This document shows, in pieces, positions 8,841 to 30,860 of a stretch of DNA of 64,000 nt. How positions within the stretch are numbered: the first letter of the stretch is position 1; each line of letters begins with the position of its first letter. A program made the translations under genes and the position numbers. The DNA comes from Paenibacillus sp. FSL R5-0345. GTDB lineage: Bacteria > Bacillota > Bacilli > Paenibacillales > Paenibacillaceae. The stretch covers positions 4,836,001 through 4,900,000 of the forward strand of contig NZ_CP009281.1 in NCBI RefSeq assembly GCF_000758585.1. Direction: 5' to 3'. Under the pieces are notes generated by a model. That model saw nothing but the letters and a program-made list of their open reading frames with translations. It had not been told where the DNA came from and searched no databases.

Positions 8841-10181
8841 ATGAACAAGCGTTTATCTAAGTTATTTACTGTCATGATGACTTTCTTCGTTTTAAGTTCA
8901 TTTAGTGTAGGCAATGTAGGTGCAAATGCAGATAATACCGCTAAAAAGGAAGACCAAGGGATTACTTTCTATCTGGTACGGCATGGAGAAACGATATTTA
9001 ATGTACAAGAACGTATGCAAGGGTTCTCCGACTCTCCTCTAACAGAGAAGGGAATTGAAGTAGCCGAGAATCTAAGCAGAGGCTTGAAGAACATTCCGTT
9101 CGTTGCCGCGTACAGCAGTTCGAGCGAACGGGCAAGCGACACGGCCGATCTCGTTCTTGAAGGCCGCAATCTCAAGCTGATCAAAGACAAGCGTTTGAGA
9201 GAAATCAATTTCGGTGACTTGGAAGGCGCTTATCAAACAGATGTTATGAAGCATACAAATGTTGCTTCGTTCAAGAAATTCGATTACACCTCGATGAACG
9301 GTGAGAATATGCAAGGCGTGTTCGAGCGGGCTAAAGCATCGCTGGATCAAATGGTTGAAGCAAACAAAACAAAAGGCGGGAATGTGCTTGTCGTTTCGCA
9401 TGGCATCACCATTCTCGATTTGGTCATGGGTCTCGACCCGAAAGCATGGGATATGAGCAAGGGCGGCTTGCCGAATTCCAGCGTAACGAAGATTCAGTGG
9501 AAAGACGGCAAATATACGGTGCAAAAAGTCGGCGATCAGAGCTATGCGGAAAATGGTCAAAACAAGCTCACGTTCTACTTCGTTCGTCACGGCGAAACGC
9601 TGTTTAACGTGCAAAAACGGATGCAGGGCCTCTCGGATGCTCCGCTCACGGAAGAAGGCATCAAGGTGGCCGAGGACCTGGCACGAGGCTTGCATGACAT
9701 TCCGTTCAGCGCAGCATACAGCAGCTCAAGCGGACGTGCGATAGATACGGCCGATTCCATTTTGGAAGGCCGAAACATGATTCTGAAAACGGATAAACGC
9801 TTGAGAGAAATGAACTTCGGTGACTTGGAAGGCGCTTATCAAGCAGATATTATGAAGCATACAAACGTTGCTTCGTTCCAGAAACTCGATTACACCTCGG
9901 TGAACGGAGAAAACATGGCTCAGGTTTTTGCCCGGACAAAAGCGGCAGTAGACCAGATCATTGCCGATAACCAAGGGTCGAAAAAGAATATCATTGTCGT
10001 TTCCCACGGCATCACCATTTTGGATTTGGTCATGGGACTTGATCCTAACGCTTGGGATATGGGCAAAGGTGGTTTGCCGAATTCCAGCGTGACGATCGTG
10101 GAATGGGAGAACGGCAAATTTACGGTAGGAAAAGTTGGCGACACCAGCTATTTGGAAAAGGGCAAGGCACTTTCACATTAA
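8841..10181 (+). CDS. Secreted tandem histidine-phosphatase (phosphoglycerate-mutase-like) protein
   Basis: The product is a 446-residue exported protein with a signal peptide at residues 1 to about 30 (positive MNKRLSK, hydrophobic core, then VGANA). Two full histidine-phosphatase domains follow at about 40-240 and 242-445. Each has the phosphohistidine motif RHGET, a second catalytic arginine in SSSxRAxDTA, the acidic residue in FGDLEGAY, and the second histidine in VVSHGIT. Both domains therefore look catalytically competent. Likely role: extracellular phosphomonoesterase or phytase-like scavenging of phosphate from sugar phosphates (inference). RBS AAAGGGG precedes the ATG. Base composition from about 9070 on is visibly more GC-rich than the neighbours. 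Confidence 0.88.
   Translation: MNKRLSKLFTVMMTFFVLSSFSVGNVGANADNTAKKEDQGITFYLVRHGETIFNVQERMQGFSDSPLTEKGIEVAENLSRGLKNIPFVAAYSSSSERASDTADLVLEGRNLKLIKDKRLREINFGDLEGAYQTDVMKHTNVASFKKFDYTSMNGENMQGVFERAKASLDQMVEANKTKGGNVLVVSHGITILDLVMGLDPKAWDMSKGGLPNSSVTKIQWKDGKYTVQKVGDQSYAENGQNKLTFYFVRHGETLFNVQKRMQGLSDAPLTEEGIKVAEDLARGLHDIPFSAAYSSSSGRAIDTADSILEGRNMILKTDKRLREMNFGDLEGAYQADIMKHTNVASFQKLDYTSVNGENMAQVFARTKAAVDQIIADNQGSKKNIIVVSHGITILDLVMGLDPNAWDMGKGGLPNSSVTIVEWENGKFTVGKVGDTSYLEKGKALSH
8958..10169 (+). repeat. Tandem 606-bp in-gene duplication (two units)
   Basis: Unit 1 (8958-9563) and unit 2 (9564-10169) encode residues 40-241 and 242-443 in an exact 202-codon register. Identity is very high at DNA level in the middle of the units: 9211-9250 and 9817-9856 are almost the same, including synonymous positions. 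This indicates a recent duplication or ongoing gene conversion between the two phosphatase domains. Confidence 0.85.
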
Positions 10182-13596: not shown

Positions 13597-14986
13597 ATGA
13601 GTGTTCGGAATTGGTGGTTAATGATTTCAGTGGGTCTAGGGATACTATTGAACCCATTAAATTCTTCAATGGTTTCTGTGGCTATTCCAAGATTGCAAAA
13701 TGTATTCCAACTTGACTATACAGGTGTTTCCTGGATTATTTTTTCTTTCTACATTGCTAGTAGCATCGCTCAACCTGTCATGGGAAAGGCCAGCGATTTA
13801 TTTGGTAGGAGAAAAATATTTCTTTCCGGGCTTATAGTAGCCTTCATTGCCTCATTATTAGCTCCTTTCGCACCAAGCTTCGCGTGGCTCATCGTGTTTC
13901 GTATTGTGCAAGCTATTGGAACAAGCATGATGGTTGCCGTTGGGATGGCCATAGTGCGAATTCATGTAACGGAAAAACAAGCGACAGCGCTGTCTGTTTT
14001 GTCCATCTTCCTATCCGGTGCGGCAGCCATCGGCCCCTTTATTGGCGGGGTTATCATACACTGGTGGGGCTGGCCTGCTATCTTTTTCGTCAATATTCCA
14101 TTTGTGGTATTGAGCTTTCTATTGTCTTGGAGAAATATTCCTAAGGAAAACTCTTCATTAACCGTTTCATCGGGCATGTCCCTTCGCAAATGGTTCAATT
14201 GGATAGATGGATCAGGGATCCTGCTCTTCACAGTGGGACTGGTTGCCCTGCTCATTGGATTACTCTCAGCAAAATCATCCGGGCACATCGCTGTAGGAAA
14301 TGTCGTTGTTTCACTGATAGGACTTGCTCTGCTAGGGGTATTCGTACGACATGAGTTAAAAGCGGCTTCGCCTTTTATCCCTTTACGCACATTCGCCAAA
14401 TATCCTGCGATGACTTGGGTTAATGTGGAGTTCATGCTCGTTAACGTACTTTATTACTCACTCTTTTTCGGAGTTCCGTCCTACTTGCAAGTGGTTCGCC
14501 ATCAGCGAATATCAAACAGGGATACTTATGCTAACCTTAGGCCTATGCTCTCTAGTTACTTCTCCAATAGCAGGACGATGGATCGATAAATCCGGACCAA
14601 GACCGGCATTGCTAGTGTCTGCAATATTGATGACTGCGGGATCAGTATGGCTCGTGACCTTGAATCAATCTTCACCGGTTATTAGCGTGTGCCTGGCGTT
14701 GGCTGCATTCGGGATTAGCAATGGGTTGAATAATGTAGGCATGCAAGCAGCTTTGTTCCAAAGTTCACCCAAAGAAATCATCGGAGTAGCATCCGGATTA
14801 TTTAATACATCAAGATATCTGGGAACCATTCTCTCTTCCTTATTGATAGGAATCATAATGAGAGGTAAGTTCAGCTTTGAGGGATTTCAAGTCCTTGGGA
14901 TTATTCTCACGATCATTGCATTGGCTTTGGTATTCATGAGTCGGCGGCGCCGGAAGTCTGGGGATATGCGGGAGCAATTCAATTGA
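13597..14986 (+). pseudogene. DHA2-type MFS drug exporter, frameshifted
   Basis: Two overlapping frames encode one 14-helix-type multidrug transporter. The first (13597-14589) begins MSVRNWWLMISVGLGILLNPLNSSMVSVAIP and contains the family motif GKASDLFGRRK. The second frame (open from 14423) carries ISEYQTGILMLTLG onward to TAA at 14984-14986. The join is at about 14499-14500: dropping one C from CGCC gives QVVR-ISEYQTGIL, as expected for the family. Restored length is about 463 residues. It is either a genuine disruption or an assembly error, and there is no slippery heptamer. It is divergent from the LysR gene, its likely regulator. Confidence 0.75.
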
Positions 14987-19092: not shown

Positions 19093-20106
19093 CTACCTCT
19101 CGTGCACAATAACCCCTTTAGAAACACGCAGATTCGTATACTCCTCCATGATCTCTGGAACATCTTTCAACGAAAACCGGTGGCTAATCAATGACTCAAT
19201 CTGAACGATCCCCTTCTCAATTAACGCAATCGATTCCTCATGGGTATAAGGATTAATAAAAGAGCCCATGATGACCAGCTCTTTCGTGAAAATTTCGAAT
19301 GGGGAGACTTGAATACATGTGTCAGGGGAAGCAACACCAAACATTAATACTTGTCCACCCTTACGTGATGCCTTAACCGCCAGCTCCATGGAATCCGCCC
19401 GGCCTACACATTCAATCACAATATCAAATTGATGATGAAGAGCTTCCATCACACCTGCTGCTGCAGGAGATACCGCTTCATCCGCACCTAATTCAACTAA
19501 TCGGTCATGTTTGAACATTTCCGTCTCACTGACAATGATCCCTTTAACACCCGCAGCTTTTACGAGCTGCAAGAACAATTGACCAATAAAACCACCACCG
19601 ATAATCAGGACTTGGTGAGCCCTACGAATGTCGAGCTTCTTATAGCCATGAAGAACACAACCTAGAGGTTCAATCATTGCCCCTTCGATCCAGCTCATTT
19701 CATCAGGTAACAAGTAACAGTTCGCGGCAGGTACTACGCAATATTCTCCCATGCCTCCATCACGAGTTACTCCAACAGCCTGCAAGTTATCGCACAGATG
19801 CACTTTTCCATTCCGGCAAAAATAACAGTTCCCACAATAGATGTTAGGATCCACGGATACACGGTCCCCAACCTGAAGAGCCGTAACCTCGTCACCCACA
19901 GCAACCACTTCCCCTGCGAGCTCATGCCCTAACACAACCGGAGCGGTCACCTCCGCAGACCCAGGATATCCATGATAAATATGCTGATCTGTACCACAGA
20001 TCCCGCAGCATTTCACACGAAGTTTAACTTCTTTGAGGCCTACAGCTGGAGCTTCCCATTCCATAAAATCAATGCGCTTATTTCCCTGAAATACAGCCGC
20101 CTTCAT
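19093..20106 (-). CDS. Zinc-dependent medium-chain dehydrogenase (polyol/threonine-DH-like)
   Basis: A 337-residue NAD(P)-dependent sugar-alcohol or related dehydrogenase. Catalytic zinc ligands are Cys37 in CGICGTD and His61/Glu62 in GHE. The structural zinc lobe has Cys91, 94, 97 and 105. The Rossmann motif GGGFIG lies near residue 170. Its ATG overlaps the stop of the beta-mannosidase gene by 4 bases (ATGA), so it is the last gene of the mannoside operon. Possible roles are oxidation of a hexitol or of a sugar released by GH130/GH2; the substrate is unknown. Confidence 0.88.
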   Translation of the reverse strand: MKAAVFQGNKRIDFMEWEAPAVGLKEVKLRVKCCGICGTDQHIYHGYPGSAEVTAPVVLGHELAGEVVAVGDEVTALQVGDRVSVDPNIYCGNCYFCRNGKVHLCDNLQAVGVTRDGGMGEYCVVPAANCYLLPDEMSWIEGAMIEPLGCVLHGYKKLDIRRAHQVLIIGGGFIGQLFLQLVKAAGVKGIIVSETEMFKHDRLVELGADEAVSPAAAGVMEALHHQFDIVIECVGRADSMELAVKASRKGGQVLMFGVASPDTCIQVSPFEIFTKELVIMGSFINPYTHEESIALIEKGIVQIESLISHRFSLKDVPEIMEEYTNLRVSKGVIVHER

Positions 20107-22694
20107 ATTAGTACATCTCCTTCAGTTCTAAGCTTCTGTATAGATGCATCATTCATCGCCGTCACACGTAGGGTTTCCCAAGGAAGTTCCCCTGCAGCAG
20201 CATGATGTACATGAACCGTCTTCTCCTCACCTGGGATCAGATCAAAGAAATTATCATCCATGATCACCCAAGGAGCATCCAGTTCAATCATCACCATCCG
20301 GGCAACACGATCCGAGATCAAACGGATATGTCCTTTTACTTCATCCACAGAGATCTGAATATGTGCTTCTTGATAATCCATATCTTTATAATCTCTTAAA
20401 TAGAGAACATACTCTTCTGTCATCTGTTTCTTCGAACGAAGCACGGCCACAACCTCGCGCGGACTATACTGTTGCAGCACCTCAGCCTCAGGTAAATTGG
20501 CAAAATTAATTTTACCGTTCGCTTCAACGGTCACATCGAATGCACGCTGATATACAATCGTACCATCCATCTGATAGATTGTTAATTCCGCCTCATCCTC
20601 ATAAATCTCACGCCGATCATTAACAGCCCATAACTGCAGCTGCCCATTCGGATCATGATCTACACATAAGAGTACCGGTGCAAAGAATTTACGCGCATAG
20701 TGATAGCTTGCTTTTGGCAAGCCATAGTAATCGATGACAGACCAGCTTGTTCCCGGCCAGCAATCATTAAACTGCCAGAACAAAGCCCCGCTCGTATCCG
20801 GCTTATTACGGCGATAATGCTCAATACCATATCTTAACCCTTCTGCCTGGGTAAGCATCGAGAATTGAATATATTCATAGATATCCTTCGGAATTCCAGT
20901 AAAACCTTCCATGAGCATAATGCCCTTTGGATAATGGATATCTTTATTACGGTATTTCATTTCATCGCTATCCCAGTAGAACTGATTGTCCGGCATGTTC
21001 TTCGCTAAAGTATAACGATTGGAAGCGGCATGCAGTCCGAATTCACTGGCGAATTTCGTGAAATCTGACTTGAATCGTTTGAACGATATCCCTTCAACAC
21101 TATAATCCTGTGTCTGTGGTTCACCAAATTGACGAGGCTCATTATTCCCATGCCAAACTTGCCAGTTATGTGTATCGCCCACATCACGCGAATTATGATC
21201 ATTTCCGCCAAAAGGGGAACTAGGCCAAAACGTTCGCGTTGGATCGAGCTGCTCCAACACCGCAGGCATGAGCTCATGATATATTTTCTCTCCATAAAAA
21301 GGATGTGTAATCTCGCCGCTAGAGGAGAGTGCCTCATACAACCAATCATTCTCGTTATTCCCGCACCATAAGGCAAGACTCGTACGACTGCGAAGACGTG
21401 TTACGACCTGCTCAATTTCTCGGTGAACATTATTCATGAAATTACGATTATAATCTGGATACAACGCACAAGCGAACATGAAGTCCTGCCAGATTAAGAT
21501 TCCTAACCGGTCACATTCATCAAAGAAAATATCCCGCTCATAAATGCCTCCGCCCCAAGCGCGAATCATATTCATATTGGCAGCCTTGGCCATTTGAAGG
21601 AGATGCGTATATCGGCTATCCGGTACGGTCGCAATAAAGCTATCAATAGGGATCCAATTTGCACCTTTGGCAAAAACCTTTACACCGTTCAATACAAACG
21701 TAAAAGCATGGCGCCCCTCTTCATCAAGCTGCATTAACTCGATCTTACGAATCCCAAATCGCTGCTCATAAGTATCGATTGGCTCCCCATCTGCAAATAA
21801 CGTAACACGTAATTGATATAAGAAAGGCGTTCCTAGATCATGCGTCCACCATAGCTTCGGATCTATCACCCGCAAAGTAACTGAATGATGAAGCGTGCGT
21901 GCTGTAATCGCCCCGTCAACCGTAATCCCTGAAGCTCTGTCTAAAGAGACATACGCTTCCGCAACGCGCTCTGTACCTTCTAAGAGTTCCACACACGCCG
22001 TATATGAACACTCGCGATCAAAGGCATGTGCGCATAAATCCACATCAACGATACCTACTTGATCCTGGATCGAAGTTGTTCGAGCAAACACATGATCTAA
22101 ATGTGCATGACGGCGTTTAATTAAATGCACCTCTTTCCAAATCCCTGCACAGACCAGACGTGGACCCCAGTCCCAGCCAAAATGACTCTGCGCTTTACGT
22201 GTCCAGATCCGCTTCTTGCTAAAGCCTGACCAATAATATTGGATCTTATCGCCTGCGTGCACATGAATAGGATCAATTTTTACGGCAAGCGTATTCTTCC
22301 CTTGATTTAATTCACGGGTTACATCAAAAGAATGGCTGATGAACATATTATCCGTTGATCCAAGCTCCACACCGTTAAGATATACGGTCGCATAGGTATC
22401 TAACCCTTCGAACAATAGCTCCATCTTCTCACCAGGTTGAGGATCAGAATCGTATGAAAAGACCGTTCGATACCACCATACCTTTTCTTCAACCCAACGG
22501 CATTTCTGATCTTGGTGGCCAAAGAAAGGATCCTCAATGATGCCTTTCTCCCGAAGCGTCGTATGGATATCACCGGGCACTGTGGTGGTCATCCAGAAAT
22601 AATCAATGAACTCTGGGGATGCAACTTCAAGATCCCGGACTTCCCCGACATTAAAATCACGAAGTTTCCAGTTTTCAGTTAATTTGATATTCAT
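20103..22694 (-). CDS. Glycoside hydrolase family 2 beta-mannosidase
   Basis: A cytoplasmic exo-beta-mannosidase of about 863 residues that releases mannose from non-reducing ends. It has an N-terminal jelly roll with the family pattern WKLRDFN...TTVPGDIHTTL, immunoglobulin-like domains, a TIM barrel, and C-terminal beta domains. The acid/base Glu is in NNENDW (about residue 454, counted from the upstream-most start) and the nucleophile Glu in ASEFG (about 558). IRAWGGGIYE is also typical. Possible starts are TTG 22715, ATG 22706 or ATG 22694; I use the last, with GGGAGAG 12 bases upstream. It is followed by the dehydrogenase with a 4-base overlap. Confidence 0.92.
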   Translation of the reverse strand: MNIKLTENWKLRDFNVGEVRDLEVASPEFIDYFWMTTTVPGDIHTTLREKGIIEDPFFGHQDQKCRWVEEKVWWYRTVFSYDSDPQPGEKMELLFEGLDTYATVYLNGVELGSTDNMFISHSFDVTRELNQGKNTLAVKIDPIHVHAGDKIQYYWSGFSKKRIWTRKAQSHFGWDWGPRLVCAGIWKEVHLIKRRHAHLDHVFARTTSIQDQVGIVDVDLCAHAFDRECSYTACVELLEGTERVAEAYVSLDRASGITVDGAITARTLHHSVTLRVIDPKLWWTHDLGTPFLYQLRVTLFADGEPIDTYEQRFGIRKIELMQLDEEGRHAFTFVLNGVKVFAKGANWIPIDSFIATVPDSRYTHLLQMAKAANMNMIRAWGGGIYERDIFFDECDRLGILIWQDFMFACALYPDYNRNFMNNVHREIEQVVTRLRSRTSLALWCGNNENDWLYEALSSSGEITHPFYGEKIYHELMPAVLEQLDPTRTFWPSSPFGGNDHNSRDVGDTHNWQVWHGNNEPRQFGEPQTQDYSVEGISFKRFKSDFTKFASEFGLHAASNRYTLAKNMPDNQFYWDSDEMKYRNKDIHYPKGIMLMEGFTGIPKDIYEYIQFSMLTQAEGLRYGIEHYRRNKPDTSGALFWQFNDCWPGTSWSVIDYYGLPKASYHYARKFFAPVLLCVDHDPNGQLQLWAVNDRREIYEDEAELTIYQMDGTIVYQRAFDVTVEANGKINFANLPEAEVLQQYSPREVVAVLRSKKQMTEEYVLYLRDYKDMDYQEAHIQISVDEVKGHIRLISDRVARMVMIELDAPWVIMDDNFFDLIPGEEKTVHVHHAAAGELPWETLRVTAMNDASIQKLRTEGDVLI

Positions 22695-22718
22695 TATCTT
22701 CGTCATCTCTCCCAAATT

Positions 22719-22755: not shown

Positions 22756-23817
22756 TTATACGTATACCAAGCTGTCTAGAATTTCTTGTACACTAAGTTC
22801 TGCGCAAGCCATTGATGTATCCGCAACTCCGTAATACATTTTGACGACATCGCCTTCCACAAGTGCACCGCAAGAGAATACAACATCTCCGAAGAATCCA
22901 TTCTTCTCATAATCCGCTTCCGGCTCCATAATCGGAGCATTGGAACGCGCAATCACTTTCGAGGGATCATTTAGATCTAACAAGACTGCCCCCATGCAAT
23001 AGCGATGTTCCAGTGTTGCCCCGTGATACAACTCCAGCCAACCTTTATCGGTCTTGAATGGAACCGCACCGCCGCCAATCCGGCCACTATCCCACATCCC
23101 GTCACGCAAACCGATCAGATGCTTATGATTGCCCCAATATAATAAATTGTCCGATTCTGCAATCCATATTTCAGGATTTCCCGTGCTTTTCGTCGTTGGA
23201 CGGTGCAATGCATAATATTTGCCGTTAATTTTCTCTGGGAAAATCAATACGTCTTTATTATCCGGCCCAAAGATCATGCCGTGATGAGTTACATTCACGA
23301 AATCTTTAGTTGATACCAGCGATTCTCCAACGCCCACTGGGGAGACTGCCGAGAAATATATATAGTAGGTATCCGCAATTTGGGTTACGCGGGGATCTTC
23401 TACCCCGAAGGTTTCCAGTGAATTGGAAGGGTACACAAATGGCTTCTCATCCACCGTAAAATGATGTCCATCCTTACTTCGAGCAATTCGGATATAAGAT
23501 AATGAAGTCAAGTACTGGAATGTAGCACTGGCGGATCTATTCTTGATCACACGCGGATCAGAGAAATCGAAACGCTCGTCATCCGTATTCAGATCCAAAA
23601 TATCTAATTCATTGGTCTCCGGATTATAAATCGGAGCTTTCACAATTTTAGGGTCCTTACTGATTGGACGTTCTGCTACTCGAAGAAACATTAATATTTC
23701 ACCATTATAGCTAGCGATACCGGCATTAAATGCACCGATCACTTCAAAGTCCTCGTGATACGGCTTGACGTCCGCCGGTGTAATCAGCGGATTTTGTTCA
23801 TAACGATAGATTTTCAT
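22756..23817 (-). CDS. Glycoside hydrolase family 130 mannoside phosphorylase/mannosidase
   Basis: A 353-residue five-bladed beta-propeller of GH130. Family motifs are RVAERP (about 46-51), the proton-donor Asp in GVEDPR (138-143), HRP (205-207) and LYHGAT near 260. Characterised members either phosphorolyse beta-mannosides (mannosyl-glucose, mannosyl-GlcNAc or beta-1,2/1,4-mannooligosaccharides) to mannose-1-phosphate, or hydrolyse beta-1,2-mannosides. The phosphate-binding residues present (Arg46, Arg50, His205, Arg206) favour a phosphorylase, but subfamily cannot be fixed by eye. No signal peptide. AGGGAG precedes the ATG. It sits between DUF1861 and beta-mannosidase. Confidence 0.88.
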   Translation of the reverse strand: MKIYRYEQNPLITPADVKPYHEDFEVIGAFNAGIASYNGEILMFLRVAERPISKDPKIVKAPIYNPETNELDILDLNTDDERFDFSDPRVIKNRSASATFQYLTSLSYIRIARSKDGHHFTVDEKPFVYPSNSLETFGVEDPRVTQIADTYYIYFSAVSPVGVGESLVSTKDFVNVTHHGMIFGPDNKDVLIFPEKINGKYYALHRPTTKSTGNPEIWIAESDNLLYWGNHKHLIGLRDGMWDSGRIGGGAVPFKTDKGWLELYHGATLEHRYCMGAVLLDLNDPSKVIARSNAPIMEPEADYEKNGFFGDVVFSCGALVEGDVVKMYYGVADTSMACAELSVQEILDSLVYV

Positions 23818-23852
23818 GTTGTAATAACTCCCTTAACCAAATGGATTTCATG

Positions 23853-24797
23853 CTATAAAATTTCAAATTGAGCAAATGGATCAGGGATTGTCGCACGTTG
23901 TGCTTCGGCATCGCTGATTCCTGCATATATGTGAGCTGTGCCGTCTTGATGACGTACGAGCCCGCCGCTGAATACGACATCTTCTAAATCAGGACGTTTG
24001 GCAACACCTGGCAAGAACTGATTGCGTACAGCGATTAATTGAATATCCGAATAATTACCTGTTTCCGGATCGATAGCGAATACCATGGGGTAGTAGTGAC
24101 GATCACCCGCCTCATCAAAAGATGCGATATGCCCAAGGACACCGAGAAGCCCGTTCTTCAGCAAGTGTGCTTCATTCGCGCCGCCCCACTCTTCATCAAC
24201 GAACTGCCCTTCCAACAACGGTGTTTCTTCGATCAACGGAATGGATAACGCCTCCAACGAGGCAATGCGGGTAAAACCGATTTTCCCGCGTCCTCCTTTA
24301 TCTCCTTGAGGGCGGGTCAGCACTCCAATGCTATCTTTCAGGTCAACCAGCCGCAAATCTTTCATACCATCCGGACCAATAAAGAATAATTCTAAGCTAG
24401 CGATGTTCTTCCCGCGGTAGAATACTGTACGCCACATTAAGGCATCAGCTTTTACCGGATGCGGGTAAATTTGAACACCTCCAACAATTAATTCGCCATT
24501 GATTTTCGTAAAAAACGGATCTTGAAGTTTAAGAATAGGCGCTCCTTCACGAGGAGCCCACTGTCCATCACGCTCGACGAAAAAAACGACATTGGAATGC
24601 TCGCTGTCACGGGCTTCAACCCGACCTGCTATCACCCATTCACCTTCATCTTGGAAAGGTGCTGTAATGTTATAGACATCTTTGTGATCTACACCGGTGA
24701 AATTTAATTTCTGCGTATCTGTTACGAACACGTCTTTCATCGCGTATTCCATGAGCAATTGTTCACATGTTTTCACAGCAGTTTTGTGCAGCTTCAT
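23853..24797 (-). CDS. DUF1861 family protein (beta-propeller-like, unknown function)
   Basis: A 314-residue cytoplasmic protein that I recognise as the DUF1861 type. Repeating blade-like segments include FTGVDHKDVYNITAPF, VIAGRVEARDSEHSNVVFF, DPFFTKINGELIVGGVQ and GFTRI...EEWGGANEAHLLKNGLLGVLGHI. Repeated acidic residues at blade edges recall the GH43/GH130/GH32 five-bladed propeller enzymes. No catalytic function has been established to my knowledge. Position between GH13 and GH130 in a mannoside operon makes a glycoside-processing role likely (inference). The ATG at 24797 has AGAGAGGA upstream, and it lies 17 bases after the GH13 stop. Confidence 0.75.
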   Translation of the reverse strand: MKLHKTAVKTCEQLLMEYAMKDVFVTDTQKLNFTGVDHKDVYNITAPFQDEGEWVIAGRVEARDSEHSNVVFFVERDGQWAPREGAPILKLQDPFFTKINGELIVGGVQIYPHPVKADALMWRTVFYRGKNIASLELFFIGPDGMKDLRLVDLKDSIGVLTRPQGDKGGRGKIGFTRIASLEALSIPLIEETPLLEGQFVDEEWGGANEAHLLKNGLLGVLGHIASFDEAGDRHYYPMVFAIDPETGNYSDIQLIAVRNQFLPGVAKRPDLEDVVFSGGLVRHQDGTAHIYAGISDAEAQRATIPDPFAQFEIL

Positions 24798-24814: not shown

Positions 24815-26470
24815 CTAATCAAATAATAGCGGCTCGCACATCCATATTGCGGCTTCATTCGGCAATAAGGTGACCAAGTCTGTGCCGCTCACTGTCTCTC
24901 GGCGGCTTGATAATATACAGGCTGCTTGCCCATCCAACAACATACTAGGATCAATCTGTACGCTTTGCTTGTCAAAATTCAAAGCTACGAGTGCTCTAGT
25001 ATTGAGTGCTTTCAACGTTCTTACATATAAAATAAGATTGCCTCTGCGTTCCAGCACGTCATAATCTCCGAACTGAAACACGTCCTGTGTATTGCGCAAG
25101 CGGAGAAGCTTTTTATAATAATGAAGTAATGAATTCGGTTGACTTGATTCGGACTGCACGTTTAATTGCTCATAATTTGGGCCCATGTCAATCCATGGTT
25201 TCCCTGAAGTAAACCCGCCCTGGGGACCTGCGTTCCATTGCATCGGAGAACGGGATGCATCTCTTCCCTTCGCATTCGCAATTTCCAAGGCTTCTGCCCG
25301 GGTAGCCCCCCGCTGTAGTGCAATTTCATATGCGTTTAATCCTTGGATATCCCGCATATCCTCCAGCTTATGGGCTACGAAATTCCGCATCCCAATCTCT
25401 TCACCGAAATATAGGAAAGGTACCCCTTTTGCGGTCAAGGCCAGCGTGGCCATCAGACGAGCCCGTTCCTCCTCAATCTCCGCATCTCCTTCGCCAAAAC
25501 GCGAAATCACGCGATCCATATCATGACTGCCGAAGAATAACGTTGGAATCTGATCCTCACGGTGTACCTGCTCCATCGTCTTAAGCTCCGTGAATAAATT
25601 TTCTGGACTAAATTCCTTCTGGCTTCCCAAATTGAAATTAAAGACCACATCCAACTTACCCGCTCCGCTGTAATGCCTCAGCATGTCCATGTCTTCAGAT
25701 CCGACCTCACCTACCATGAACATCCCGCTATGCGCATGAACAAACTCACTAATTTCCTCGATGGCCTCTATAATTCCATTTTGATTCTGGTCATGCACAT
25801 TCTTTTGTTCACCCGTTAATTCATCCATCGGGTTATCCGGAAATTGATCGGACACCGACAAGAAGTTGATCACATCTAGCCGGAAACCGCTAACGCCTTT
25901 GCCTAGCCAATAAGCCATGACATCCTTCATCGCTTCTTTTACTTCCGGATTCGCCCAGTTCAAATCGACCTGTTCTTTCGCAAACCCATGATAGTAATAC
26001 TGTTCCGTAGCAGCATCCCATTCCCACGCTGTTCCGCCAAAAAAAGACTCCCAGTTATTTGGAACCCCGCCGTTCACAGCGTCCTTCCAAATGTACCAAT
26101 CCCGCTTCGGATTTGTTCTTGAGGATCGGGATTCCTTGAACCACGCATGCTCTGAAGACGTATGATTCAAGACAAGATCGGCAATCACTCTGATTCCGCG
26201 AGTCTTTGCTTCCTGAATAAAGCGTTCAAAGTCTTCCATCGTTCCATAATCCGGGTCAATCTGGTAATAATCCGCAATGTCATACCCGTTATCTACTTTT
26301 GGAGACTTATAGAACGGTGTAAGCCAGATGCCCCCGATTCCAAGATCCCTCAAATAATCCAGCTTGGAAGTAAGACCGTCGAAATCACCAATCCCATCTC
26401 CGTTACTGTCACAGAAGCTTGGCATATACACTTCATAGAATACCGCCTTTTTCCACCACGGCTGTTCCAA
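24815..26470 (-). CDS. GH13 alpha-glucosidase (oligo-1,6-glucosidase-like)
   Basis: A 551-residue cytoplasmic GH13 enzyme acting on alpha-glucosidic bonds of short oligosaccharides. The N-terminal VYMPSFCDSNGDGIGDFDG carries the calcium-like loop. LVLNHTS is at about 99-105, the nucleophile Asp199 in GFRLDV, the acid/base Glu255 in VGEVG and the third acid Asp317 in GSHDMD. HDMD replaces the more usual HDQPR. The start is TTG at 26470 with strong AGGAGGGG 7-8 bases upstream; no ATG gives full coverage. Its presence among beta-mannoside enzymes suggests a mixed substrate, or a sucrose/trehalose-like gluco-side part. Confidence 0.88.
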   Translation of the reverse strand: MEQPWWKKAVFYEVYMPSFCDSNGDGIGDFDGLTSKLDYLRDLGIGGIWLTPFYKSPKVDNGYDIADYYQIDPDYGTMEDFERFIQEAKTRGIRVIADLVLNHTSSEHAWFKESRSSRTNPKRDWYIWKDAVNGGVPNNWESFFGGTAWEWDAATEQYYYHGFAKEQVDLNWANPEVKEAMKDVMAYWLGKGVSGFRLDVINFLSVSDQFPDNPMDELTGEQKNVHDQNQNGIIEAIEEISEFVHAHSGMFMVGEVGSEDMDMLRHYSGAGKLDVVFNFNLGSQKEFSPENLFTELKTMEQVHREDQIPTLFFGSHDMDRVISRFGEGDAEIEEERARLMATLALTAKGVPFLYFGEEIGMRNFVAHKLEDMRDIQGLNAYEIALQRGATRAEALEIANAKGRDASRSPMQWNAGPQGGFTSGKPWIDMGPNYEQLNVQSESSQPNSLLHYYKKLLRLRNTQDVFQFGDYDVLERRGNLILYVRTLKALNTRALVALNFDKQSVQIDPSMLLDGQAACILSSRRETVSGTDLVTLLPNEAAIWMCEPLLFD

Positions 26471-26493: not shown

Positions 26494-27333
26494 CTATTTC
26501 AAGTTAAATTGCATACCTTCCTGGAATTTCTTGCCGAAGATGATGAACAAGATAATGATTGGCAAGGTGAGCATCACTGCACCGGCATACATCGGACCTG
26601 GATACGATTGATACGGACCAAACATCTGAGATAATAAAACGTTCAATGTTAACATGCCGTCACTTCGGACGACGATCATATCCCATAGGAGCTCTGTCCA
26701 ACGTTCCATTAGCAGGAATAGGAATACAACGGTCGTAATGGACTTCGACATAGGCATCATAATCTTATACAGGATTTTGAAATCGGATGCCCCATCCAGC
26801 TTGGCGGCTTCAATGAAAGCGTCGGGTACCGCCTTAAAGAAGTTGGTGTACATGAAGATCCCCCATAAACTCATCGCCTTGGGAATAATGAGCGCCCAAT
26901 ACGTATCGAACAGTCCTACTTTTTGAATAATCAAAAAGTTAGGGATGATCAGAATGATTGCCGGGAAGAACATATGAAACAACACAAAATTGTTAATAGA
27001 GTCTCTCCCGCGAAATTTCAGCTTCGAGAGCGCATAAGCGACCATAATCGCGAACATCATCATTAAGGCTGTAGATATCAGGGAAACGAACACACTGTTA
27101 AAGAAGGCGTGAATCCATGGTCTTGTAATCCCGGTCTCACCACCTGTAAAGAGCCATTGATACGAGCGCAGCGTAAATTTCGTCGGTATCAGCTTCCGGT
27201 CTACCTGTGACCAATCTGCAAGTGAATTCAATACCATATATAAATAGGGGAATACCATAATCACGAGCAGTACGATCGCAATCAGATAGCGGATCGACAG
27301 CCGGAGCTTGATGTTTGAATTAGACCCAACCAT
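26494..27333 (-). CDS. ABC sugar importer permease (MalG-type)
   Basis: A 279-residue inner permease of a CUT1-type importer. It has six membrane segments and the EAA loop EAAKLDGASDFKILYKIMMP that contacts the ATPase. It overlaps the upstream MalF-type permease by 14 bases. Together with the lipoprotein at 28201 it imports the oligosaccharide handled by GH13, DUF1861, GH130 and GH2. There is no ATPase gene in the operon. Confidence 0.9.
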   Translation of the reverse strand: MVGSNSNIKLRLSIRYLIAIVLLVIMVFPYLYMVLNSLADWSQVDRKLIPTKFTLRSYQWLFTGGETGITRPWIHAFFNSVFVSLISTALMMMFAIMVAYALSKLKFRGRDSINNFVLFHMFFPAIILIIPNFLIIQKVGLFDTYWALIIPKAMSLWGIFMYTNFFKAVPDAFIEAAKLDGASDFKILYKIMMPMSKSITTVVFLFLLMERWTELLWDMIVVRSDGMLTLNVLLSQMFGPYQSYPGPMYAGAVMLTLPIIILFIIFGKKFQEGMQFNLK

Positions 27334-28201
27334 TGCGCTTACCCCACATTTCCAGAATTTTTCGGATCACGAAGATGGATATAAATGTCGCAACCGCAGC
27401 CATAATAGCGATAGCTGATGCATAACCTGCCTGCAGGTTCTTAAATGCTTGACTGTATATTTCCATTTGCCATGTATTCGTTGCATAGTTTGGTCCGCCG
27501 CCTGTTAATTGGTAGACCTCAGTAAAGATACCGAATGTTGCACCAAAGGATAAAATTAAGGTTGTATAAATCGCAGGGTACAGCAAAGGCAAAGTAATTT
27601 TCCAGAATCTTTGGCTGTCCTTCACACCATCAATTGCCGCTGCTTCATATACTTCCTGATCAATACTTTCTAAACCTGAAGTAAGAATTAACGCATAGTA
27701 ACCTGTAAATTTCCAAGCCATAATCATCGCAACGACGAATAATGCCGAAAAAGATCCGCCGAGCCAGTCAATATCAAGACCTAACCGTTCACGCAAGAAC
27801 GTCTGAACAGGACTTGTATGTGACAAAAAACCTTTAACAATAAGGGATGCAACAACCCCTGAGGATAGATATGGTAAAAAGAATCCAATAAGAAATACGG
27901 ATTTTAATTTAGGTAAGCCCTTTACAATTACCGCTACAAAAAGCGACATCGCTGTGACAATCGGTACAAACACGATCATAAATTTGTACGTTACCCAAAA
28001 TGCCGATCTTACCCCTGGTGTGCCTAATGCTTTGGTAAAATTCTTGAATCCTACAAAATCATAAGTTGGTGAAATCAAGTCCCAGTTAGTAAAAGACAAA
28101 TATAGAGACCAGATAAGCGGGCCCAAGAAAAAAACAGTCGAAAAAATAAGGTAAGGGCTGGCAAAAAGCCAGCCTAACCGATTATTATTTTTTTCAATCA
28201 T
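27320..28201 (-). CDS. ABC sugar importer permease (MalF-type)
   Basis: A 293-residue CUT1 permease with an N-terminal helix (GWLFASPYLIFSTVFFLGPL), an extracellular loop, and the EAA loop YEAAAIDGVKDSQRFWKITL. Its ATG shares one base with the stop of the binding-protein gene (TAATG), and AGGGGA inside that gene's end acts as ribosome site. This is tight coupling with the binding protein. It pairs with the 26494-27333 permease. Confidence 0.9.
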   Translation of the reverse strand: MIEKNNNRLGWLFASPYLIFSTVFFLGPLIWSLYLSFTNWDLISPTYDFVGFKNFTKALGTPGVRSAFWVTYKFMIVFVPIVTAMSLFVAVIVKGLPKLKSVFLIGFFLPYLSSGVVASLIVKGFLSHTSPVQTFLRERLGLDIDWLGGSFSALFVVAMIMAWKFTGYYALILTSGLESIDQEVYEAAAIDGVKDSQRFWKITLPLLYPAIYTTLILSFGATFGIFTEVYQLTGGGPNYATNTWQMEIYSQAFKNLQAGYASAIAIMAAVATFISIFVIRKILEMWGKRNGWV

Positions 28202-29514
28202 TATTGAAGTTCCCCTTCAATCGCCTTCTTCATATTGTCCCAACCCGTTTTTGGATCAATCTCACCACGAACGATTTTGTTAAAGGCCTCTTGACCAATA
28301 AAGGTTTGCAATTCGTTGAATTTCGGATTGTCCATGGATGGAACAGCATTCGGGATTGCTTTTGCATACTCTTGCAATACAGGCGTTTTTTCAAATACTG
28401 GTTTAAATACTTCATTAGTACCTACATCATCACGTGCTGGAGGCAAGTTTGTTTCTTGGAAAAAGGCAACATCGTTTTGGTCATCTGAATATACCCACTT
28501 GATGAATTCTATTGCAGCAGCCTGTTGTTCTGGGCTTGCCGATGCATAGATAACAATCCCTTTAGCATCCGCAAATGTTTTAGCATTCGCTGGATCCATA
28601 CCGTCAGGTACAGGAGGCAATGATACTTCAAAGTTCTCCTTGTACTGAAGCTCTGGATATTTCTCAGCCCATGTGCTGAATGTCCAAGGTCCTACATCCG
28701 TAAATACGCCCACGCCATTTTCAAAAGGTTCTGTTACATTCTGAGACAACAACCCTTTCTCCTTACGAAGATTGTCCACGAAAGTAAGAACGTCTACACC
28801 CGCTTTTTCATCGCCAACAAACTGGCTACCTTCAATGAATTTGTTGCCATCTGAAGCTGCATTGTACAGCATAAAGAAGTCGAACCATCTTTTCCAAGAG
28901 GTAGGGTCTGCTAAGTCAGGTTTCGCCCAAAGATATTTATCCGGGTATTTTGCTTTTAATTTTTTCGTTGCCTCAATCACTTCACTGTATGTTCTTGGAA
29001 CTTCGTTCACACCAGCTTCTTTCAAGATATCCGTTCTCCATCCGAACAACATCGCATTCGAGTAGATCGGGAGAACATATTGATGACCATCCGCAAATTC
29101 CCAAGGCTCAATCGTTTTGGTCATATTACGTTTTGTGACAATATCACTGAAGCCTGCTATTGTATCCAAAGGAACTAACGCTTTACTGTTCGCAAGTTGT
29201 GCTGCAAAACCACGGCTAATATTCTCAGTCATCGTTGGAGCACTTCCACCCGCGATTGCAGCTTGGATACTCGCCTCAGAAGTAGGGGACTCCTTGATCG
29301 CACTTACATTGATTTTTACTTTAGGATTAACAGTCTCATACTCTTTGGCGATTTTTTGCCAATATGCTTGTTGAGTCGGGTTAGGTGCAGCCCAGAACTC
29401 AATAGTTGTTACTCCATCTGCTGAAGTGCCTGAATTACTACTCTTCGATCCACAACCGGCAAGAATCGTGAATACAAGCGTAAGTGACATTAATACTGCA
29501 AGCTTTTTCTTCAT
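28201..29514 (-). CDS. ABC sugar-binding lipoprotein of the mannoside importer
   Basis: A 437-residue extracytoplasmic solute-binding protein (SBP family 1, MalE/UgpB fold). The signal ends with lipobox LAGC, Cys21, then a Ser/Gly linker and FWAAPNPTQQAYW at the start of lobe 1. It is anchored in the outer leaflet of the membrane and delivers oligosaccharide to the two following permeases. The ATG at 29514 has AGGGAGG 9 bases upstream; longer frames toward 29577 have no ribosome site. It is the first gene of the operon, transcribed from the promoter with LacI-type operators at 29579-29662. Confidence 0.92.
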   Translation of the reverse strand: MKKKLAVLMSLTLVFTILAGCGSKSSNSGTSADGVTTIEFWAAPNPTQQAYWQKIAKEYETVNPKVKINVSAIKESPTSEASIQAAIAGGSAPTMTENISRGFAAQLANSKALVPLDTIAGFSDIVTKRNMTKTIEPWEFADGHQYVLPIYSNAMLFGWRTDILKEAGVNEVPRTYSEVIEATKKLKAKYPDKYLWAKPDLADPTSWKRWFDFFMLYNAASDGNKFIEGSQFVGDEKAGVDVLTFVDNLRKEKGLLSQNVTEPFENGVGVFTDVGPWTFSTWAEKYPELQYKENFEVSLPPVPDGMDPANAKTFADAKGIVIYASASPEQQAAAIEFIKWVYSDDQNDVAFFQETNLPPARDDVGTNEVFKPVFEKTPVLQEYAKAIPNAVPSMDNPKFNELQTFIGQEAFNKIVRGEIDPKTGWDNMKKAIEGELQ

Positions 29515-29578
29515 AAAATAAAACCTCCCTAAAGTATAGATGCACTTTCGTACAGCATTTAGTAATCTATAAATCAAT

Positions 29579-29662
29579 TTTTGTAACGTTACAAAATTAC
29601 TTAAAACGATGTTTTGTAAGCGTTACATTTGCTATTATTATAGTTTTAAGCGAAATTGTCAA
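29579..29662 (-). promoter_or_regulatory. Promoter and two operators of the mannoside operon
   Basis: On the minus strand -35 TTGACA is at 29662-29657. The -10 can be AATAAT (29639-29634, 17-base spacer) or TATAAT (29642-29637, 14-base spacer). Downstream lies TGTAA-GCG-TTACA (29627-29615) and the 18-base perfect palindrome TTTTGTAACGTTACAAAA (29579-29596). Both carry TGTAA/TTACA arms as in LacI-family operators, with 3- and 2-base centres. Their place downstream of the -10 implies repression. The regulator is most likely the divergent LacI protein. Confidence 0.8.
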
Positions 29663-29716: not shown

Positions 29717-29745
29717 TTTACAATAATATTTTGTAATGTTATAAT
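29717..29745 (+). promoter_or_regulatory. Promoter of the LacI-type regulator with overlapping operator-like half site
   Basis: -35 TTTACA (29717-29722) and -10 TATAAT (29740-29745) are separated by exactly 17 bases. TTTTGTAATGTTATAA (29729-29744) overlaps the spacer and the -10, and resembles the operators of the divergent operon with one degraded arm. This suggests weaker autorepression. Confidence 0.7.
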
Positions 29746-29849
29746 AATTTAGAATTGTAATGTAGTTTTGCGGCATAATCTTTAGTATTATGAGAGACAG
29801 TATGGAAGAATATTCATTACACTTCTTATTAGAAAGGACGTATCTTCGC

Positions 29850-30860
29850 ATGAAGGTGAAGGTAACTATGCAAGATATCGCCGATCGATTAAATATATCT
29901 AAGAACTCTGTTTCTCAGGCTCTGTCTGGTAAAGACGGTGTCAGCGAAGAAACAAGGCAATTAATTATCGATACAGCGAATGAGATGGGTTACATCTATT
30001 CGCGAGGGCGTAAAAGCACTGAAGAAGAAGTAGGAACCTTTGCCATCTTGGCATCGGAATTTGCATTTTCCAAACGCAACTTTTTTGGAGAAATTTATTT
30101 AAGCATTGAGAAGGAAGCAGCGAAGCGAAACAAGCGTATGGTTATTCAATCTATTGATAAGCATTCTTCTGAGAATTTAATCCTGCCTCCTATTTTATTG
30201 GATCAATCCGTTGAAGGGATCTTGATTCTGTCCCATATTACGAACCCTTATATTCAGGCAGTGACCAATACAGGTATTCCCACCGTGTTAATTGATCATC
30301 ATCATCCTGATCTTATGGCCGACAGTATTCTCACTAATAATCGCTATGCCGCTTATACAGCGGTGCAGCATTTAATAGAATTGGGACATACTCATATTGG
30401 TTTTATCGGCAATATACAGTTCTCTCCCAGCTATTACGAGCGCCTGGAGGGTTATCGCCTGGCCTTATACCAGGCTGGAATTGAATACAACCCGATGTGG
30501 GTAATTGATCGTGTAACAGAAGAAATGGATGATGTATTCAACGCTGTACAAGCGCTCGATAAGCAGCCTACGGCATGGTTCTGTGTCAATGACGGATTTG
30601 GATTCTTGATCAATTCCGTTGTGTACAAGCTTGGGTATCGTATTCCCCAAGATGTATCCATTGTCAGCTTCGATAATGGACAATTGTCACGAATAACCAC
30701 ACCGTTGACTACAACGATGAATGTAGATTTGTCTTACTTTGGACGTAAAGCTGTTGAACAGCTCTTCTGGCGTATTGACCATCCTGATGAACCTTTTGTT
30801 GAAATTCTCCTTCCGTCTAATCTGATCGTTCGGGAATCCACACAACATCCAATTGGATAG
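29850..30860 (+). CDS. LacI-family transcriptional regulator
   Basis: A 336-residue repressor with an N-terminal helix-turn-helix and hinge helix, residues about 5-55: TMQDIADRLNISKNSVSQAL then ETRQLIIDTANEMGY. A periplasmic-binding-like sensor domain follows (FAILASEF..., HTHIGFIGN, WFCVNDGFGFLI, IVSFDN). I place the start at ATG 29850 (MKVKVTMQD), with AAAGGA upstream; the frame is open from 29790. It is divergent from the mannoside operon and sits next to its TGTAA/TTACA operators. The inducer is probably a mannoside or its breakdown product (inference). Confidence 0.9.
   Translation: MKVKVTMQDIADRLNISKNSVSQALSGKDGVSEETRQLIIDTANEMGYIYSRGRKSTEEEVGTFAILASEFAFSKRNFFGEIYLSIEKEAAKRNKRMVIQSIDKHSSENLILPPILLDQSVEGILILSHITNPYIQAVTNTGIPTVLIDHHHPDLMADSILTNNRYAAYTAVQHLIELGHTHIGFIGNIQFSPSYYERLEGYRLALYQAGIEYNPMWVIDRVTEEMDDVFNAVQALDKQPTAWFCVNDGFGFLINSVVYKLGYRIPQDVSIVSFDNGQLSRITTPLTTTMNVDLSYFGRKAVEQLFWRIDHPDEPFVEILLPSNLIVRESTQHPIG

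What the first reader, a model, noticed from the sequence alone, without database searches (positions are those of the whole stretch)
22756..24797. DUF1861 protein next to GH130: candidate new partner enzyme in beta-mannoside breakdown
The sequence shows a DUF1861 gene 35 bases upstream of a GH130 gene, in an operon with GH13, GH2 beta-mannosidase, a sugar importer and a dehydrogenase. GH130 members are mannoside phosphorylases or mannosidases. DUF1861 has propeller-like blade repeats and, to my knowledge, no assigned reaction. The inference is that it acts on a glycoside step linked to GH130, for example an unusual mannoside linkage or a glucosyl-mannose unit that GH13 could finish.
Basis: partly seen in the sequence, partly recalled or inferred. 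Interest (0 to 1): 0.72.

Follow-up and report, generated by a model that had tools for sequence, protein, structure and literature searches.

The report
Bacterial beta-1,2-mannan phosphorylase gene pair
A bacterial gene still labelled 'unknown function' is a relative of the enzymes that Leishmania parasites use to build and burn a mannose storage sugar, and in this bacterium it very probably works with the next gene to break imported beta-1,2-linked mannose chains into mannose-1-phosphate.

Summary
In detail: a PF08950 (DUF1861) gene ends 35 bases before a GH130 gene, on the minus strand, in a LacI/ABC-importer operon. The claim 'no assigned reaction' does not hold. DUF1861 is the family of the Leishmania MTP enzymes (CAZy GT108): beta-1,2-mannosyltransferase/phosphorylases with solved structures. 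The window protein gives E=4e-44 to MTP4; its model matches 6q50 at TM 0.87 and keeps the Asp that is mutated in the inactive MTP2 D94N structure. At two discriminating positions it matches the phosphorylase MTP4, not the GDP-mannose-dependent MTP1/MTP2. Its neighbour is specifically a beta-1,2-mannobiose phosphorylase (closest structure Lin0857). The pairing is real: 55 of 56 Paenibacillaceae genomes with this GH130 type have DUF1861, 47 adjacent. The core is LacI + importer + DUF1861 + GH130; GH13, GH2 and dehydrogenase are optional. In 19 of 52 GH130-bearing loci, but 0 of 25 others, phosphomannomutase-type, mannose-6-phosphate isomerase or ROK kinase genes lie nearby. Best explanation: DUF1861 phosphorolyses longer beta-1,2-oligomannan to mannose-1-phosphate and GH130 finishes mannobiose, as Teth514_1788/1789 do with two GH130s. 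Known family; the bacterial catabolic pairing appears undescribed in the papers held here. No activity was measured.

The parts
23853..24797 (-). DUF1861 / GT108-family protein (314 aa), predicted beta-1,2-oligomannan phosphorylase; catalytic Asp93, MTP4-like R162-P163 and G222-H223
   Evidence: PF08950 411 bits; phmmer 6q50 E=4e-44, 2b4w, 6q4x-z, 6q4w; AF2 model pLDDT 94.5, TM 0.87 to 6q50; residue patterns
22756..23817 (-). GH130 beta-1,2-mannobiose phosphorylase (Lin0857 type)
   Evidence: NCBIfam NF050092 672.9 bits against a cut-off of 550; closest solved structure Lin0857 5b0p E=2e-164
24815..26470 (-). GH13 alpha-glucosidase/oligo-1,6-glucosidase-like protein, optional accessory
   Evidence: PF00128; closest structures are alpha-glucosidase and oligo-1,6-glucosidase; motifs FRLDV, GEVG, SHD present; in 26 of 39 pair loci
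26494..27333 (-). ABC sugar permease B
   Evidence: ORF; conserved in synteny; assignment from sequence resemblance to binding-protein-dependent sugar permeases
27320..28201 (-). ABC sugar permease A
   Evidence: ORF; conserved in synteny
28201..29514 (-). Solute-binding lipoprotein (likely ATG at 29514; longest ORF starts at 29577)
   Evidence: SBP_bac_8 124.9 bits; start read from sequence
20103..22715 (-). GH2 beta-mannosidase-like protein, optional accessory
   Evidence: Pfam GH2 and mannosidase domains; closest structure beta-mannosidase 5n6u; in 16 of 39 pair loci
19093..20106 (-). Zinc-dependent medium-chain dehydrogenase, optional accessory
   Evidence: ADH_N, ADH_zinc_N; in 11 of 39 pair loci
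29790..30860 (+). Divergent LacI-family regulator
   Evidence: PF00356, PF13377; in 38 of 39 pair loci
29580..29595 (.). Predicted LacI operator TTTGTAACGTTACAAA (perfect palindrome)
   Evidence: 14-mer core (1 mismatch or fewer) in 34 of 40 pair loci; only site in the 6.79 Mb genome at 1 mismatch or fewer
29730..29745 (.). Weaker second operator-like site (2 mismatches)

Best explanation
The DUF1861 protein is a bacterial GT108 enzyme working in the breakdown direction as a cytoplasmic, inverting beta-1,2-oligomannan phosphorylase. Beta-1,2-mannooligosaccharides enter through the operon's ABC importer, using an ATPase encoded elsewhere. DUF1861 removes terminal mannose from chains of three or more units with phosphate, giving alpha-mannose-1-phosphate; the adjacent GH130 enzyme splits the remaining mannobiose into mannose-1-phosphate and mannose. 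A phosphomannomutase, a ROK-type kinase and mannose-6-phosphate isomerase then feed both products into glycolysis. A LacI repressor bound to TTTGTAACGTTACAAA shuts the operon off until substrate arrives. GH13, GH2 and the dehydrogenase handle optional decorations. Shown here: family membership, fold (as a model), residue patterns, gene pairing, operator conservation and neighbouring mannose genes. Inferred: direction, linkage, chain-length split and regulation.
For: Homology to Leishmania MTPs over the whole domain and same fold, best match the phosphorylase 6q50. Catalytic Asp (MTP2 D94) aligns with D93, present in all rows except one truncated ORF. R162 and G222 as in MTP4 in every bacterial row; His and Ser in the GDP-Man-dependent MTP1/MTP2. 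Neighbour is a beta-1,2-mannobiose phosphorylase. 55 of 56 genomes with that GH130 type carry DUF1861, 47 adjacent; 102 of 111 versus 46 of 189 with a looser GH130 threshold. PGM/PMM, mannose-6-phosphate isomerase or ROK genes in 19 of 52 GH130-bearing loci and 0 of 25 without, including a PGM/PMM gene overlapping the GH130 gene in L118. Precedent: Teth514_1788 (DP 3 or more) and Teth514_1789 (mannobiose) with an ABC importer (PMC4264767).
Against: No activity was measured. The DUF1861-GH130 profile alignment is weak (3% probability); their relation rests on the fold match. 25 of 77 loci have DUF1861 without GH130 nearby, mostly in Cohnella, though all 10 such genomes tested hold some GH130 elsewhere. 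The window protein lies outside the clade that holds the MTPs and two Paenibacillaceae paralogues. The source of beta-1,2-mannan for these bacteria is unknown. The genomes are related, so Fisher values overstate independence. In the window itself no mutase, isomerase or kinase gene lies beside the operon.
Confidence: 0.68

Rival explanations
1. DUF1861 is a beta-mannoside phosphorylase, but for another substrate than plain beta-1,2-oligomannan: for example a beta-mannosyl-glucose or a beta-1,2-mannose cap on an alpha-linked glycan, whose remainder GH13 or GH2 then trims.
For: GH13 and GH2 occur in 26 and 16 of 39 pair loci. Within GH130 close relatives differ in acceptor: Uhgb_MS, near the window GH130, is listed as a mixed-linkage synthase (PMC8950772). 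The window's DUF1861 subfamily has no characterised member known to me and lies outside the MTP clade.
Against: Minimal systems in Fictibacillus and Geobacillus keep only LacI, importer, DUF1861 and GH130. All listed GT108 enzymes act on beta-1,2-mannan.
Confidence: 0.17
2. DUF1861 is a synthetic enzyme: it builds beta-1,2-mannan inside the cell from mannose-1-phosphate or GDP-mannose as a reserve, and GH130 recycles it, a bacterial counterpart of Leishmania mannogen.
For: GT108 enzymes are dual transferase/phosphorylases (PMC8950772). In L116 a DUF1861 gene is divergent from a mannose-1-phosphate guanylyltransferase and a GT4 gene.
Against: The operon has an importer and a divergent LacI gene with a conserved operator and no GDP-mannose genes; the R162 and G222 pattern is that of the phosphorylase MTP4, not of the GDP-mannose-dependent MTP1/MTP2.
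Confidence: 0.07
3. DUF1861 is a hydrolase or non-catalytic sugar-binding protein within the operon.
For: GH130 contains hydrolases that lost the phosphate-binding residues (PMC4599007).
Against: Catalytic Asp and the MTP4-like basic residues are kept in nearly all rows; PGM/PMM genes beside the pair imply a sugar-1-phosphate product; no signal peptide is visible in the sequence, whereas the GH130 hydrolases are secreted.
Confidence: 0.06

Closest known systems
Leishmania MTP enzymes (CAZy GT108), above all MTP4 (6q50)
   Same: PF08950-family homologues, same fold (TM 0.87, 34% identity), same catalytic Asp, same R162 and G222 positions as MTP4
   Different: Bacterial, single copy in this genome, in an importer operon with GH130; lies outside the clade of the MTPs and two Paenibacillaceae paralogues
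Teth514_1788 / Teth514_1789 pair of Thermoanaerobacter (1,2-beta-oligomannan phosphorylase plus beta-1,2-mannobiose phosphorylase)
   Same: Two neighbouring phosphorylase genes with an ABC importer; one enzyme prefers mannobiose, the other longer chains (PMC4264767)
   Different: Both Teth514 enzymes are GH130 and the cluster is proposed to lead to GDP-mannose; here the proposed long-chain role falls to a GT108 protein and the neighbours in related loci point to glycolysis
Listeria innocua Lin0857 (GH130, 5b0p)
   Same: Closest solved structure to the window GH130, full-length match
   Different: That is the partner gene; whether lin0857 itself has a DUF1861 neighbour could not be checked. A close relative of Lin0857 (E=1e-171) does have one (L118)
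GH130 beta-1,2-mannosidases BT3780 / BACOVA_03624
   Same: Related propeller and linkage
   Different: Secreted hydrolases lacking the phosphate-binding basic residues (PMC4599007)

Membership tests
GT108 / DUF1861 (PF08950) | Full-length sequence homology to the family profile and to Leishmania MTPs | tested here: met
   PF08950 411 bits, profile 9-295 of 296; 6q50 E=4e-44 over residues 27-309
GT108 / DUF1861 (PF08950) | Five-bladed beta-propeller fold | tested here: met
   Predicted model pLDDT 94.5, TM 0.87 to 6q50; 6q50 described as 5-fold propeller in PMC8950772
GT108 / DUF1861 (PF08950) | Catalytic aspartate (D94 of MTP2) | tested here: met
   The N of the D94N chain 6q4z aligns with window D93; present in all rows except one truncated ORF
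GT108, phosphorylase type (MTP4-like) | Residues shared with MTP4 and replaced in GDP-Man-dependent MTP1/MTP2 | tested here: met
   R162 (His in MTP1/2) and G222 (Ser in MTP1/2) in every bacterial row; R170 in all but three bacterial rows. That these residues bind phosphate was not tested.
GT108 | Phosphorolysis or synthesis of beta-1,2-mannan | not testable with these tools
   Needs enzyme assay
GH130 (for the DUF1861 protein) | Match to the GH130 profile PF04041 | tested here: not met
   No PF04041 hit for the DUF1861 protein; profile comparison weak; only the fold is shared
beta-1,2-mannobiose phosphorylase NF050092 (the neighbouring GH130) | Score above the equivalog cut-off | tested here: met
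   672.9 bits against 550
beta-1,2-linked-mannoside GH130 | Lysine that contacts O2 of the +1 mannose (Lys199 of BT3780) | tested here: inconclusive
   Window GH130 K188 (NKD motif) is shared with Lin0857 and the 1,2-beta-oligomannan phosphorylase 9fj8 and replaced in paralogues L002/L003; equivalence to Lys199 (PMC4599007) is inferred. DUF1861 K146 aligns to it only in the weak profile alignment.

The most novel reading that the evidence does not exclude
Firmicutes make and consume their own intracellular beta-1,2-mannan reserve, a bacterial mannogen, with DUF1861 proteins as the synthetic/phosphorolytic switch; the Leishmania system would be a borrowed bacterial storage pathway rather than a repurposed catabolic enzyme.
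Probability: 0.06. Interest if true: 0.85.

Novelty: new member of a known kind. Interest (0 to 1): 0.45.

Why it matters
A Pfam 'unknown function' label hides a family whose chemistry was worked out in a parasite. About half of the sampled Paenibacillaceae genomes carry it (148 of 300). If the bacterial enzymes are catabolic beta-1,2-oligomannan phosphorylases, they give the GT108 family a physiological role outside Leishmania, show what the bacterial relatives of the parasite enzymes do, and supply tools for making beta-1,2-mannosides, which are hard to synthesise. The prediction is precise enough for one enzyme assay.

Tried and rejected
1) DUF1861 as a family without known reaction: rejected, it is GT108. 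2) GH13 as a required partner for a glucosyl-mannose unit: rejected as a core step, since 13 of 39 pair loci lack it. 3) DUF1861 as a divergent GH130: rejected, no PF04041 match and a weak profile alignment. 4) Folding without an alignment gave a useless model (pLDDT 39.8). 5) Search of the Leishmania GT108 paper: not held; its conclusions are taken second-hand from PMC8950772 and PDB titles. 6) Search for a paper on bacterial GT108 or DUF1861 enzymes: none in the library. 7) Attempt to find the Lin0857 genome and its neighbours through the family of G244: not found. 8) Substrate from the neighbours of stand-alone DUF1861 genes (Cohnella): they sit beside a phosphate transporter and a PhoU-like gene, which names no sugar.

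Full report
What is there. On the minus strand, transcription order is solute-binding lipoprotein, two permeases, GH13, DUF1861 (23853-24797), GH130 (22756-23817), GH2, dehydrogenase, with a divergent LacI gene. The DUF1861-GH130 gap is 35 bases.

What DUF1861 is. Pfam gives PF08950 at 411 bits. The only PDB relatives by sequence are the Leishmania proteins 6q50 (MTP4), 6q4x/6q4y/6q4z (MTP2), 6q4w (MTP1) and 2b4w. A model built from 38 window and locus sequences has pLDDT 94.5; its best PDB matches are these same proteins (TM 0.83-0.87), followed by GH130 phosphorylases at TM about 0.6. PMC8950772 describes GT108 as inverting mannogen-acting dual transferase/phosphorylases with the GH130 fold. 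PDB titles call 6q50 a mannose phosphorylase and 6q4x/6q4w GDP-Man-dependent mannosyltransferases. So the family has a known reaction; only the bacterial members lack one in the literature held here.

Residues. In the MTP2 D94N chain the Asn sits at window position D93. D93 is present in every row of the 110-row alignment except one truncated ORF. R162 and G222 are shared by MTP4, 2b4w and every bacterial row, but are His and Ser in both GDP-Man-dependent enzymes MTP1 and MTP2; R170 is kept in all but three bacterial rows. The simplest reading is that the bacterial enzymes are phosphorylases. That these residues contact phosphate is inference.

The partner. The GH130 scores 672.9 bits in NCBIfam's model NF050092 (cut-off 550), and its closest structure is Lin0857, a beta-1,2-mannobiose phosphorylase.

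Pairing. Of 77 loci examined, 47 have DUF1861 and GH130 adjacent on the same strand, 5 have both in the locus, and 25 lack GH130 nearby. In 300 Paenibacillaceae genomes, 56 carry a GH130 at least 69% identical to the window's; 55 of them carry DUF1861, 47 adjacent. With a looser threshold it is 102 of 111 against 46 of 189. In a phylum sample, 4 of 5 genomes with this GH130 type have DUF1861, while 12 of 398 have it overall. DUF1861 is also adjacent to a different GH130 subtype in Clostridia-type genomes (L053, L079, L115, L119). Genomes are related, so these numbers are not independent trials.

Core and accessories. Among 39 loci in the order DUF1861-GH130, LacI is in 38, importer genes in 32, GH13 in 26, GH2 in 16 and dehydrogenase in 11. 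The minimal system is therefore regulator, importer, DUF1861 and GH130.

Downstream metabolism. Three gene types that would use the predicted products occur within the fetched loci: PGM/PMM (L118, overlapping the GH130 gene; L033), mannose-6-phosphate isomerase (L031, L033) and ROK kinase (L033, L117), confirmed by Pfam. By BLAST, 19 of 52 GH130-bearing loci have at least one; none of the 25 others does. A mutase beside the pair suits a sugar-1-phosphate product, that is, phosphorolysis. The window's own genome has type I mannose-6-phosphate isomerases elsewhere.

Regulation. A perfect palindrome TTTGTAACGTTACAAA lies at 29580-29595. Its 14-base core with at most one mismatch is found in 34 of 40 pair loci and only once in the 6.79 Mb genome. 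A LacI repressor dedicated to this locus is the natural reading.

Mechanism. By analogy with Teth514_1788 (DP 3 or more) and Teth514_1789 (mannobiose), which share a cluster with an importer (PMC4264767), DUF1861 should shorten imported beta-1,2-oligomannan and GH130 should finish mannobiose. Shown: homology, fold (model), residue patterns, pairing, operator, neighbours. Inferred: linkage, direction, chain-length division.

Evolution. In the tree, the Leishmania MTPs group with two Paenibacillaceae paralogues (L125, L126; support 100/100), apart from the window's subfamily. That fits acquisition of MTP genes from Gram-positive bacteria, which I recall as the published view; the paper was not available. 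Long branches are involved, so placement is provisional.

Verdict. A good, testable reannotation of a gene family still called unknown, within a known enzyme kind.

Noticed in passing
L125:8882-9832 and L126:7744-8706: A second, deep bacterial DUF1861 subfamily (38-39% identical to the window protein) clusters with the Leishmania MTPs. In L126 its gene, a window-like DUF1861 and a dehydrogenase lie together, with operator palindromes at 8959 and 15426.
   Followed up: partly
L055-L068 (for example L059:8300-9983): In Cohnella a stand-alone DUF1861 gene sits next to a Pit-type phosphate transporter and a PhoU-like gene, with no GH130 nearby. This may be inherited synteny or a link to phosphate supply.
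   Followed up: partly
L116:5202-9984: DUF1861 divergent from a GT4 glycosyltransferase, an unassigned 368-aa protein and a ManC-type mannose-1-phosphate guanylyltransferase, in the same genus as the window; it recalls the Thermoanaerobacter GDP-mannose cluster.
   Followed up: partly
L042:16488-17498 (also L043, L047, L048): Geobacillus carries two DUF1861 copies a few kilobases apart; the second is not beside GH130, and in three of these four copies the position of window S295 is Gly.
   Followed up: no
window:31144-36520: Next to the LacI gene lie a polysaccharide deacetylase and a separate arabinofuranosidase operon with its own solute-binding protein and permeases.
   Followed up: no
window:13597-14986: An MFS transporter gene appears split into two overlapping ORFs (13597-14589 and 14423-14986), which looks like a frameshift.
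   Followed up: no
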